A DNA stretch of 64,000 nt from the NCBI RefSeq assembly GCF_900109465.1, contig NZ_FOAZ01000002.1:248001-312000 (forward strand), read 5' to 3'. This document shows positions 43,161 through 45,115 of this stretch, one piece after another. Source of the DNA: Streptacidiphilus jiangxiensis (GTDB taxonomy: Bacteria > Actinomycetota > Actinomycetes > Streptomycetales > Streptomycetaceae). Every line of letters starts with the position of its first letter. Position 1 is the first letter of the stretch. Below the pieces are notes generated by a model. It saw only the letters and a list, made by a program, of their open reading frames with translations. It ran no database searches and was not told the DNA's origin. The position numbers and the translations under genes are program-made.

Positions 43161-43177
43161 GCCGCCGCCCCGGCGGC
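43161..43177. terminator. Short bidirectional hairpin between the TPR gene and the P450
   Basis: GCCGCCG (43161-43167), 3-nt loop, CGGCGGC (43171-43177) between two convergent stops 20 nt apart. Confidence 0.5.
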
Positions 43178-44397
43178 TACCAGAGCACCGGCAGCCGCTC
43201 CGGCAGGCGCTTCATGTAGCCCGTGCGCCAGACCAGTTGCTCGATCGGAACGGCCAGGTCCAGCTCGGGCATGCGGTCCAGCAGTGTGGTGATGGCGATC
43301 TCCGCGTGTCGGCGGCCCAACGCCGTGGCCGGGCAGTAGTGCTGCCCGCCACCGAAGGAGAGGTGTGCGGCGCTGTTGGGCCGGGCCAGGTCGATCGCGT
43401 CCGGGTTCGCGAAGACCTCCGGGTCGCTGTTGGCGCCCTCGACCAGGACCAGCACCAGTTCGCCGGCGCGGACCAGCACGTCACCCAACTGCACATCCTC
43501 CAGGGCGAGTCGGGGCAGCCCGTCGCCGATGGAGAGGTTGACGCGCAACAGCTCCTCGACCGCCGCCGGGGCCAGCTCCGGCTCCTTGCGCAGCCGCGCC
43601 CGCAGCTCCGGGTTCTGCAGCAGCGTCACGAACGCCATGGTGAGGAACCCGGCCGTGGAGACGACACCGGCGCCGAAGAAGGTGACGCCGACGGTGGCCA
43701 GCATCTCGTCCGTCAGGTGGGCGTAGTCCGGGTCGGAGCGCAGGGCCGCGAGCTCCGCCATCAACCCGGTGGTGGCCGGGTCGTCCAGACGGTCCGTCAT
43801 ATAGGAGATGTCGCGGTCCCAGTTGAGCTTGGCACCGGCGACCGGGCAGGCGGAGTTCATGAACGCGATGTCCAGGCTGCTCGCCAGCCGGGGCGCGTCC
43901 TCGAACGGGATGCCGAGGATGCGGCAGTGCAGGGCCTCCGAGTACGGGTTGGCGAAGCCGTGCCGGAGATCCGCCGGCGCGCCGGCGGCGAGCAGGCCGT
44001 CGACGAACACGGCGGCCTGTTCGCGCATCCACTCGTCCAGGCCCGGGGCCTTGGGGTTGATCGCCTTGAGCACGGCCTTGCGCAGCCCCGCGCCGGTGAT
44101 GTTGCCCATGTTGTTGACGACCTCGGGCGGGATCGTCAGCGCGTACTGGCGCGGCACGCCCGGTGCGGAGGTGTCCTTCAGGCTGAACCGCCGGTCCTCC
44201 AGCACCTGCTTGCACAGGGCGTGGGAGGAGACCAGCCAGGCCGGGTCGCCCGCGATGGTCCGCACCCGCTTGACCGGTTCGGCGCGCAGCTCCTCGATCT
44301 CGTCGGGCAGTCGGTCGCCGCGCCAGGAGAACGGGAACGCGGGCAGGTCGCCGACCTCGATCGACGCGGTCTCGGTCGACGCAGTGTCAAGCGGCAT
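43177..44397 (-). CDS. Cytochrome P450, CYP121-like (cyclodipeptide oxidising)
   Basis: A 406-residue P450; heme-thiolate Cys355 in SFGGGQHYCPATALGRRHA. It reads along its full length like mycobacterial CYP121A1, recalled from memory: PPEVVNNMGN, AFMNSACP/NWDRDISYM, FFGAGVVSTAGFLT, VNLSIGDGLPRLA, GDVLVRAGELVLVLVEGAN and the end RLPERLPVLW. The I-helix lacks the usual acid-alcohol pair, as in CYP121. Several CYP121 substrate contacts seem conserved (Thr/Val/Asn of the PPEVVNNM region, Trp of NWD, the I-helix Ser), but positions matching Phe280, Gln385 and Arg386 read Ile, Met (395) and Lys (396). It overlaps the cyclodipeptide synthase gene by 11 nt. Expected to couple or oxidise a cyclodipeptide. 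Confidence 0.93.
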   Translation of the reverse strand: MPLDTASTETASIEVGDLPAFPFSWRGDRLPDEIEELRAEPVKRVRTIAGDPAWLVSSHALCKQVLEDRRFSLKDTSAPGVPRQYALTIPPEVVNNMGNITGAGLRKAVLKAINPKAPGLDEWMREQAAVFVDGLLAAGAPADLRHGFANPYSEALHCRILGIPFEDAPRLASSLDIAFMNSACPVAGAKLNWDRDISYMTDRLDDPATTGLMAELAALRSDPDYAHLTDEMLATVGVTFFGAGVVSTAGFLTMAFVTLLQNPELRARLRKEPELAPAAVEELLRVNLSIGDGLPRLALEDVQLGDVLVRAGELVLVLVEGANSDPEVFANPDAIDLARPNSAAHLSFGGGQHYCPATALGRRHAEIAITTLLDRMPELDLAVPIEQLVWRTGYMKRLPERLPVLW

Positions 44398-45115
44398 TCC
44401 GGTGTCCCCCTTCGGTGGCCGGCGTGACGATCGCATGGCCCTGGTTGCGTGAGGCGCGCAGGCCGTAGCCGCGCGAGTAGAGCAGCTCCGCCAACGGCAG
44501 CAGCTGGTGGTAGCAGTTGAGCGAGGACGGCACGTCGAGGATGGCCGGGCTGTCGAGGAAGAGCGGCGCTTCGGCGCAGATGTAGCGCAGGCACACCTCG
44601 CGCTGCACGGCGGTCGCGGTCCGGCCCTCCCCGAGCACCTTGCTCTCCAGGAACGCGCCGACGAGCCGGTCGATCACGGCGCGGAACTCCGGATCGGTGT
44701 CCAGCCGCCGCCACAGCTCCTCGTGCAGGCGCCTGTAGGCGGGGACCGCCTGGAAGTCCGACATGGCGTGGGACCGGATCCGGCCCTCGCCGTCGTCGAC
44801 CTCCTCGACGGCGGTGCGCACCTTGGCGCGCACCCCGCGCAGGTTCTTGACCGCCTTCCGGCGGGCGTCGTCCTCGGTGTAGCCGAGCGCCTCGTACATC
44901 TCGGCGACGTACAGGTCGGTGTGGACCAGGTCGACCTGACGGAAGTTCGCCGCACCCCAACGGGCCAGGTCGATCAGGCGCTGCTGGGAGAAGTAGCTGT
45001 TGCCGGGCGAGACGCCGATCACCGCGTGGTCGCCCTCGGCCTGGATCAGGGCGCAGTGGGGCGTGTAAGGCCTGACATGGAATAACGTATCGGTCGCTGT
45101 CTGCAAGATCTGCAA
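44387..45115 (-). CDS. tRNA-dependent cyclodipeptide synthase, Rv2275-like
   Basis: A 242-residue enzyme of the class-I-tRNA-synthetase-like CDPS fold; joins two aminoacyl-tRNAs into a diketopiperazine. Catalytic Ser36 lies in GVSPGNSYFS; YICAEAPLFLDSP carries the Tyr...Glu pair and SLNCYHQ the YH of the NYH subfamily. Long blocks (RRKAVKNLRGVRAK, GLRASRNQGHAIVTP) match M. tuberculosis Rv2275, which makes cyclo(Tyr-Tyr). The start is a TTG at 45115: an in-frame stop precedes it, and no ATG/GTG occurs before the conserved core (TTG 45106 also possible). Codon 11 is TTA (45083-45085), a rare bldA-type codon. It lacks the Rv2275 N-terminal extension. Confidence 0.95.
   Translation of the reverse strand: MQILQTATDTLFHVRPYTPHCALIQAEGDHAVIGVSPGNSYFSQQRLIDLARWGAANFRQVDLVHTDLYVAEMYEALGYTEDDARRKAVKNLRGVRAKVRTAVEEVDDGEGRIRSHAMSDFQAVPAYRRLHEELWRRLDTDPEFRAVIDRLVGAFLESKVLGEGRTATAVQREVCLRYICAEAPLFLDSPAILDVPSSLNCYHQLLPLAELLYSRGYGLRASRNQGHAIVTPATEGGHRNAA

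What the first reader, a model, noticed from the sequence alone, without database searches (positions are those of the whole stretch)
43177..45115. A mycocyclosin-type locus (Rv2275/CYP121 pair) in a streptomycete-like genome
The cyclodipeptide synthase and its 11-nt-overlapping P450 read, block after block, like Rv2275 and CYP121A1 of Mycobacterium tuberculosis. That pathway makes cyclo(Tyr-Tyr) and forms a C-C bond between the tyrosines, and was long regarded as special to the tubercle bacillus. In this copy the P450 positions matching Phe280, Gln385 and Arg386 are Ile, Met and Lys, so the substrate or coupling pattern may differ. The locus has only these two genes, so the product may be the final metabolite.
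Basis: partly seen in the sequence, partly recalled or inferred. Interest (0 to 1): 0.92.

Follow-up and report, generated by a model that had tools for sequence, protein, structure and literature searches.

The report
Cyclodityrosine locus with conserved RNA leader
Two adjacent genes in this soil bacterium belong to a published family that makes and cross-links a ring of two tyrosines, and just in front of them lies a small folded RNA, not matched in the RNA catalogue searched, that precedes most of the related genes examined and probably controls how much of the enzymes is made.

Summary
The pair is real: a cyclodityrosine synthase (44387-45115, minus) overlapping a CYP121-like P450 (43177-44397, minus) by 11 nt. 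It is one copy of the published "gym" two-gene locus of streptomycetes, whose P450s make mycocyclosin and also couple cyclo(Tyr-Tyr) to guanine or hypoxanthine. The closest solved enzyme is GymB1 (77% identity), not CYP121A1 (65%). The Ile/Met/Lys residues are the family norm (76 of 80 loci); the mycobacterial loci differ. What I did not find described lies directly upstream: window 45116-45186 (minus) is a structured RNA leader (7 of 13 pairs covary) ending 2 nt before the ribosome-binding site of the TTG-start synthase gene. In 394 genomes a covariance model finds it before 63 of 64 cyclodityrosine synthases and 45 of 51 related synthases (those examined mostly have a Trp-type pocket); it persists at some loci where the synthase has decayed and precedes a few short LuxR-type genes. 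No Rfam family reached threshold on the stretches searched. Most likely it controls translation of nucleobase-coupling diketopiperazine pathways; what it senses is unknown. The locus itself is ordinary; the leader is the finding.

The parts
45186..45215 (-). Inferred sigma-70-like promoter: -35 TTGACA (45215-45210) and -10 TTGACT (45191-45186), 18-nt spacer; transcript would begin near 45179
   Evidence: Upstream 60 nt of 66 leader-bearing loci and the window, by eye: in many TTGACA or GTCAC, then TAACTT/TTGACT, just before the leader. Start site inferred, not measured.
45116..45186 (-). Structured RNA leader: P1 45177-45172 with 45139-45134; P2 45164-45160 with 45154-45150; CC/GG pair; conserved internal loop CACA / GACTN
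   Evidence: Model R1 hit, 78.5 bits, the only hit in the whole window at E <= 5e-4; 7 of 13 pairs change on both sides, 0 of 500 shuffles reach any measure; RNAalifold returns the same structure
45127..45131 (-). Shine-Dalgarno sequence AAGGA, 2 nt after the 3' end of P1
   Evidence: Sequence; with a permissive list of purine-rich strings, one starts 0-7 nt after P1 in 66 of 67 leaders
44387..45115 (-). Cyclodityrosine synthase (gymA-type CDPS, NYH subfamily), TTG start
   Evidence: NF052540 405.5 bits, cut-off 300; pocket P1 VGVTMLFN identical to Rv2275, P2 LAFSQLP, catalytic residues present
43177..44397 (-). CYP121/GymB-type cytochrome P450, overlapping the CDPS by 11 nt
   Evidence: GymB1 8q6z 672.7 bits, 77% identity; CYP121A1 570.3 bits, 65%; heme Cys present; same residue as GymB1 at 37 of the 39 positions listed
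45274..46047 (+). GntR/UTRA regulator, divergent neighbour; probably belongs to the tmpAB-like genes, not to this pair
   Evidence: Pfam UTRA/GntR; nearest NCBIfam PhnF 103 bits, below cut-off 156.8; next to gym in 4 of 80 loci; a 70-72% identical relative occurs in 2 of the 4 Streptacidiphilus genomes that lack gym

Best explanation
The locus is a streptomycete-type gym operon under a structured RNA leader. The synthase joins two tyrosines taken from Tyr-tRNA into cyclo(Tyr-Tyr); the P450 oxidises it to mycocyclosin and also couples it to a purine base (guatyromycine A/B type). The mRNA begins with a P1-P2 hairpin RNA with a conserved internal loop. P1 ends next to the Shine-Dalgarno sequence of a TTG-start gene, so folding or binding at this RNA most likely sets how often ribosomes start on the synthase, and with it on the overlapping P450. 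Shown here: both gene families, the pocket residues, the RNA's conservation, covariation and position. Inferred: the products (from tested orthologues), the transcript start, control at translation, and any ligand or protein partner.
For: Product side: NF052540 above cut-off; P1 pocket identical to Rv2275; a Streptacidiphilus melanogenes CDPS made cYY 59.6%, cYA 22.2%, cYF 16.3% in E. coli (PMC5816076, passage), and the window CDPS is 86% identical to the S. melanogenes one found here (L006; that it is the same gene is inferred). P450 77% identical to GymB1; gym pairs yield mycocyclosin and guatyromycines. RNA side: covariation, seen again on 40 sequences not used to build R1, though found with it; leader before 63 of 64 and 45 of 51 CDPSs; in the genus, the 10 of 14 genomes with the gym P450 are the same 10 that have the leader; Shine-Dalgarno-like string 0-7 nt after P1 in 66 of 67; first in-frame start codon 16-20 nt after P1 in 42 of 49; over the 49, TTG 35, GTG 11, ATG 2, none 1.
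Against: No expression data. Single-sequence folding is not exceptional: z-scores -0.16, -1.96, -1.12, -0.37, and the best fold of the L100 stretch lacks the consensus stems. Modelled pair probability averages 0.57 for P1 (over 0.5 in 36 of 67) and 0.82 for P2 (59 of 67). Outer P1 pairs break in some sequences (5 of 31 at pair 10-53), and a P2 pair in 5 of 39. In part of the related group the leader lies up to about 0.5 kb before the CDPS domain, so control by start-site occlusion cannot be the whole story there. The guatyromycine primary paper was not held, so the review passage stands for it.
Confidence: 0.75

Rival explanations
1. A plain mycocyclosin locus: the P450 does only the intramolecular C-C coupling, as described for CYP121A1, and the leader has no special role.
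For: 64.9% identity to CYP121A1; window keeps Phe230 and Gln342 as in CYP121A1, where GymB1 has Met and Ala.
Against: At the ten other listed positions where GymB1 and CYP121A1 differ, the window follows GymB1 (62, 73, 74, 78, 280, 340, 344, 348, 385, 386); positions 230 and 342 vary in the family.
Confidence: 0.15
2. The conserved block upstream is a DNA element (operator or extended promoter), not an RNA.
For: It sits just downstream of a promoter-like stretch, and P2 is a near-perfect inverted repeat.
Against: Nested stems change on both sides together while the loop stays (7 of 13 pairs; sliding partners by 1-3 columns drops pairing from 96% to 34-52%); L133 and L100 have replaced stem sequences that can still pair. 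The window's GntR neighbour is not kept next to it; other regulators were not looked for.
Confidence: 0.1
3. A 5' hairpin kept for mRNA stability, inherited with the operon, without sensing anything.
For: Most hits (108 of 124) go with one gene family, so common descent explains much.
Against: 8 of 9 internal-loop columns are at least 90% conserved, against 19 of 26 stem columns (counted), which a plain stabilising hairpin would not need; the leader also precedes LuxR-type genes, unrelated to CDPS, with a similar layout.
Confidence: 0.25
4. The RNA is a binding site for the synthase itself, a tRNA-binding protein, giving autoregulation.
For: Tight link to CDPS genes; the CDPS acts on aminoacyl-tRNA.
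Against: Full-length P450 genes keep the leader in three loci where no CDPS was found (L167, L168, L170; L167 ends with its contig), as do 6 LuxR-type loci (7 with L193) and a CDPS-like gene lacking the catalytic serine (L172).
Confidence: 0.1

Closest known systems
gym (guatyromycine/mycocyclosin) two-gene loci of Streptomyces; GymB1, PDB 8q6z
   Same: CDPS-P450 pair, no other genes; P450 77% identical; same pocket residues at 280/385/386 and 73/74
   Different: Phe230 and Gln342 instead of Met and Ala; host is Streptacidiphilus-like; no leader RNA was mentioned in the passages I read
Rv2275 / CYP121A1 of Mycobacterium tuberculosis (PDB 2x9q, 1n40)
   Same: Cyclodityrosine synthase with identical P1 pocket; CYP121-type P450 at 65%; two-gene layout (reported, PMC7954767 passage)
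   Different: Different P450 pocket (Leu73, Asn74, Phe280, Gln385, Arg386); nested clade; three other Mycobacterium loci examined (L071-L073) lack the RNA leader at E <= 1
CDPS 95 of Streptacidiphilus melanogenes (PMC5816076)
   Same: Tested cYY synthase of the same genus; 86% identity if it is the gene in L006
   Different: The table passage gives products of the CDPS in E. coli; nothing on its P450 or leader was seen
Guanitrypmycin-type (gut) CDPS-P450 loci
   Same: P450s of this kind couple nucleobases (passages); the related leader-bearing CDPSs examined have the Val-Ala pocket pair linked to Trp
   Different: Trp-type pocket LGVALFF(S/A); CDPSs 40-54% identical to the nearest cyclodityrosine synthase in my set; leader can lie farther upstream. 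That these loci are gut loci is inferred.
Translation-controlling riboswitches and other cis-regulatory leaders (Rfam)
   Same: Small two-stem RNA with a conserved internal loop ending near the Shine-Dalgarno sequence
   Different: No Rfam family reached its gathering score on the stretches searched; ligand and switching untested

Membership tests
cYY-synthesising NYH CDPS (Rv2275 group) | Curated family score above cut-off | tested here: met
   NF052540 405.5 bits, cut-off 300
cYY-synthesising NYH CDPS (Rv2275 group) | NYH trio and catalytic Ser, Tyr, Glu | tested here: met
   S37, N40, Y178, E182, Y202, H203 in AlbC numbering
cYY-synthesising NYH CDPS (Rv2275 group) | P1 pocket with Asn at position 8; V or I at 65; conserved P2 | tested here: met
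   P1 VGVTMLFN equals Rv2275; P2 LAFSQLP against LRFTQLP; rule from PMC5816076 passages
cYY-synthesising NYH CDPS (Rv2275 group) | Makes cyclo(Tyr-Tyr) | not testable with these tools
   Only by orthologue: S. melanogenes CDPS
GymB / CYP121-type P450 | Heme-Cys loop and high identity to a characterised member | tested here: met
   77.4% to GymB1, 64.9% to CYP121A1; Cys in FGGGQHYCPATALG
GymB / CYP121-type P450 | Next to a cyclodityrosine synthase, two-gene locus | tested here: met
   11-nt overlap; 80 of 80 related loci have the P450 beside the CDPS; in L060 the P450 is cut by the contig end, in L077 and L081 the CDPS match is split over two frames
GymB / CYP121-type P450 | C-C coupling and nucleobase transfer activity | not testable with these tools
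   Needs expression and LC-MS
Mycobacterial CYP121A1 proper | Phe280, Gln385, Arg386 pocket | tested here: not met
   Ile, Met, Lys
Mycobacterial CYP121A1 proper | Branches with the mycobacterial clade | tested here: not met
   Window in the Streptacidiphilus clade: SH-aLRT 95 and 99 (P450), 99 and 96 (CDPS)
Structured cis-regulatory RNA | Covarying stems with conserved loop | tested here: met
   on 40 other sequences (39 distinct) 3 of 13 pairs with double changes
Structured cis-regulatory RNA | Fixed place at the translation start of a gene | tested here: met
   for the gym group; not fixed in part of the related group, up to 528 nt from the domain
Known Rfam family | Match at or above gathering score | tested here: not met
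Riboswitch | Binds a ligand and changes expression | not testable with these tools
   None

The most novel reading that the evidence does not exclude
The leader is a new class of translational riboswitch that ties diketopiperazine synthesis to supply of a co-substrate shared by the Tyr-type (gym) and Trp-type (gut-like) pathways, most simply a purine base (guanine or hypoxanthine), and that also steers a family of LuxR-type regulators.
Probability: 0.15. Interest if true: 0.85.

Novelty: new variant of a known kind. Interest (0 to 1): 0.6.

Why it matters
The leader is: a conserved, covarying RNA of about 70 nt in front of 108 cyclodipeptide synthase genes of a 394-genome sample, in the gym group at the start codon, that I could not find in the Rfam and paper searches made. 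It gives a handle on what controls these pathways and an orphan RNA whose partner can be tested directly. The tree also suggests that the mycobacterial mycocyclosin genes are a derived offshoot of an actinomycete family, with a changed P450 pocket and no leader, which bears on why that pathway differs there.

Tried and rejected
Considered and dropped: (1) that the divergent GntR regulates the pair: it is next to it in only 4 of 80 loci, a 70-72% identical relative occurs in 2 of the 4 Streptacidiphilus genomes lacking gym, and its nearest curated relatives include phosphonate regulators, below cut-off. (2) Spread on plasmids: best-ranked CDPS match in PLSDB is 39% identical. (3) Spread in viral contigs: 0 matches to an exact leader pattern. 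(4) Known RNA family: Rfam hits were far below gathering scores, such as snoRNAs on the opposite strand; none. (5) An upstream reading frame as the cause of conservation: one-base length differences between P2 and GGGAC speak against a conserved frame. (6) Tyr as the only signal: the leader also precedes CDPSs with a Trp-type pocket.

Results against my reading: weak single-sequence folding; one cyclodityrosine synthase of 64 without leader (G146) and 6 of 51 others without; two leader hits with nothing recognised downstream (L171, L182); model R2 no longer lists G036 (L177) even at E <= 0.01. In the named set of 80 loci the leader was found in 74: 72 by pattern and L040, L081 by model; not in Nocardia L054 and L062, Kitasatospora L067, Mycobacterium L071-L073 (E <= 1). 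Dropped rows: L128 was left out of alignment A1 as a doubtful match; six hits at E > 0.1 and L128, L177, L182 and L183 (same place as L126) were not carried into A3. The trees use 53 and 54 rows that I chose from the loci and reference chains; they are quick ones with SH-aLRT only, and the support that nests the mycobacterial group is 91 and 94, not starred. The genome search scored only 12-14 candidates per genome, so other gene contexts may have been missed. The 40 sequences of A4 were found with R1, so they are not chosen blind to its structure.
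Full report
1. The observation. On the minus strand a 242-residue cyclodipeptide synthase (CDPS; 44387-45115, TTG start) and a 406-residue P450 (43177-44397) overlap by 11 nt. The CDPS scores 405.5 bits against NCBIfam NF052540, cyclodityrosine synthase, cut-off 300. In the PDB its best match is Rv2275 (299.5 bits). The P450's best match is GymB1, 8q6z (672.7 bits), ahead of 8q6x (571.0) and CYP121A1 (570.3). Identities to the window: GymB1 77.4%, 8q6x 68.7%, CYP121A1 64.9%; CDPS to Rv2275 63.4%.

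2. It is a known kind of locus. A review describes a widely distributed streptomycete gym locus of cdps and p450; six such pairs expressed in S. albus gave mycocyclosin, guatyromycine A (guanine on the phenolic hydroxyl) and guatyromycine B (hypoxanthine at its ortho position), by P450s called the first dual-function ones of such pathways (PMC10092475, passages). The primary paper (Liu and co-workers 2022) was seen only as a reference title in PMC11843346 and is not held. Homologues of CYP121 had been counted in 176 of 721 CDPS clusters in 2018 (PMC5767969, passages). A protein search lists 675 relatives of the P450 at E <= 1e-60 among the 8000 candidates scored; the best, 94% identical, is named mycocyclosin synthase of a Streptacidiphilus by one source.

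3. Distribution. A scan of genome contigs found 85 relatives and kept 80 loci, in Streptacidiphilus, Streptomyces, Yinghuangia, Kitasatospora, Nocardia, Longimycelium and Mycobacterium; 80 of 80 carry the P450 next to the CDPS. In a sample of 394 genomes of the window's family, 64 have a CDPS above the NF052540 cut-off and 113 one at E <= 1e-60. Among 14 genomes of the window's genus, 10 have the P450. The nearest named loci are Streptacidiphilus, so the host is most likely of that genus.

4. The three residues. At CYP121A1 positions 280/385/386 the window has Ile/Met/Lys. So do GymB1, 8q6x and 76 of 80 loci; the exceptions are three Mycobacterium loci (Phe-Gln-Arg once, Phe-Ala-Arg twice) and one locus cut short. 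In the P450 tree the mycobacterial clade lies with Nocardia and Longimycelium (SH-aLRT 97), and this group lies within streptomycete diversity (91; CDPS tree 98 and 94). Because Nocardia and Longimycelium keep Ile/Met/Lys, the mycobacterial residues are most simply the derived state (inference on unstarred branches). Gln385 and Arg386 make water-mediated contacts to cyclo(Tyr-Tyr) in CYP121A1 and an Arg386 mutant has a changed heme potential (PMC11084333, passages), so the two types may differ in chemistry. GymB1 and the P450 of Streptomyces flavidovirens (L035) stand at zero distance in the tree.

5. Product prediction. The CDPS pocket P1, VGVTMLFN, equals that of Rv2275, including the Asn held essential for tyrosyl recognition; P2 is LAFSQLP. 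A Streptacidiphilus melanogenes CDPS made cYY 59.6%, cYA 22.2%, cYF 16.3% in E. coli (PMC5816076, passage of Table 1); the S. melanogenes locus here (L006) is 86% identical to the window, and I infer that it is the same gene.

6. The leader. While comparing start sites I saw a block of about 45 nt kept upstream of the CDPS in all five named Streptacidiphilus loci, including L007, which shows none of the window's neighbouring genes, and then in most loci. A pattern with up to 3 substitutions finds it before 121 of 134 CDPS loci fetched (redundant; 93 distinct sequences), with 122 matches in all over 1.28 Mb, both strands. Thirty-one diverse sequences were aligned by MAFFT without structure. The structure taken from the window's own fold without its outermost pairs, P1 6 bp, CC/GG 2 bp, P2 5 bp, is kept in 96.0% of cells; 7 of 13 pairs change on both sides; 0 of 500 shuffles reach any measure; partners slid by 1-3 columns pair in 34-52%. 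RNAalifold gives the same structure. Sixty-seven matches fitted to the model give 95.5% and again 7 pairs. Forty further sequences not used to build R1, though found with it, and all but one from CDPS genes other than gym, give 97.6% pairing and 3 pairs with double changes, with 0 of 500 shuffles except for the count of pair types, 33 of 500; RNAalifold recovers 12 of the 13 pairs.

7. How tightly it follows the genes. Covariance model R1 hits 114 of 394 genomes, 124 places. Of 64 CDPSs above cut-off, 63 have it 15-189 nt before the domain; of 51 below cut-off (E <= 1e-60), 45 have it within 528 nt; 108 of 124 hits precede such a CDPS. Of the other 16, eight lie at loci with a P450 and/or CDPS or pieces of them (L167-L170, L172-L174, L177), six precede short LuxR-type genes (L175, L176, L178-L181; GerE domain), two have nothing recognised (L171, L182). 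R2, built from 67 hits including the LuxR ones, searched at E <= 0.01, adds one more LuxR case (L193) and no longer lists L177's. R1 found 4 of 396 genomes in a phylum sample, all of the window's family; R2 found 12 of 355 in a class sample, one of them from another family (G933) with CDPS and P450. The genome's own second CDPS (30% identity) has no leader at E <= 1. Some genomes of the sample are the same species as training sequences, so the 63 of 64 is not fully independent; for the 45 of 51 only four training sequences came from that group (L124, L125, L129, L130).

8. What the other leader-bearing synthases are. Of 13 related CDPS rows examined, 12 have P1 LGVALFFS or LGVALFFA, with the Val-Ala pair at positions 3-4 that PMC5816076 links to Trp; the 13th (L172) lacks the catalytic serine. 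Of these rows L126 and L183 are one place and L127 has no accepted leader hit. Eleven of 13 have a P450 57-67% identical to this family. They look like guanitrypmycin-type loci (inference). What Tyr-type and Trp-type loci would share is a purine base as coupling partner; this is the ground for the novel reading, and it is thin.

9. Where it sits. A promoter-like pair of hexamers precedes many leaders (by eye), so the leader would be at the 5' end of the mRNA. A Shine-Dalgarno-like string, from a permissive list, starts 0-7 nt after P1 in 66 of 67 leaders. The first in-frame start codon lies 16-20 nt after P1 in 42 of 49 loci; over the 49 it is TTG in 35, GTG in 11, ATG in 2 and not found in 1. 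This points to control of translation initiation.

10. Novelty of the leader. No Rfam 15 family reached its gathering score on the window stretch, six loci, or L124, L176, L133 stretches. Paper searches for cyclodipeptide synthase with riboswitch (8 papers) and cyclodipeptide with RNA motif (2 papers) list none that by title or abstract start concerns such a leader; in PMC11610984 the words leader and untranslated do not occur, and riboswitch occurs twice in places not shown to me. Subscription papers were not searchable.

11. Verdict. The unexpected part lies 1-71 nt outside its coordinates.

Noticed in passing
window 46930-48560, minus: Genes like TmpA (NF049936 422.3 bits, cut-off 400) and a phosphonate-degradation HD oxygenase (TIGR03276 223.2 bits, cut-off 214.6), near a GntR gene at 45274 whose best curated match is PhnF (below cut-off): a likely organophosphonate-use island beside gym.
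   Followed up: partly
window 46053-46553, plus: Mycothiol-S-transferase family protein (Pfam MST, 149.6 bits).
   Followed up: no
L123 7165-8846, minus (G000 contig C38): A second CDPS in the same genome, 30% identical, followed by a short P450-like protein that matches Pfam p450 only weakly (22.1 bits, cut-off 22.8); no leader at E <= 1.
   Followed up: partly
L175, L176, L178-L181, L193: Short LuxR-type genes preceded by the same RNA leader; a Shine-Dalgarno-like string follows P1 within 5-7 nt in 5 of the 6 tested; role unknown.
   Followed up: partly
L167, L168, L170: Full-length P450 genes of this family with the leader but without a recognisable CDPS.
   Followed up: no
L172 5270-6163, minus: A CDPS-like gene with Gly in place of the catalytic serine that keeps the leader.
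   Followed up: no
L058, L054, L062, L071-L073: Longimycelium keeps the leader (62.4 bits) while its sister group Nocardia plus Mycobacterium has none at E <= 1, so it was probably lost on that line.
   Followed up: partly
Streptacidiphilus genomes G037, G062, G070, G074: The gym pair lies far from the GntR relative or on another contig, so its place in the chromosome is not fixed within the genus.
   Followed up: partly
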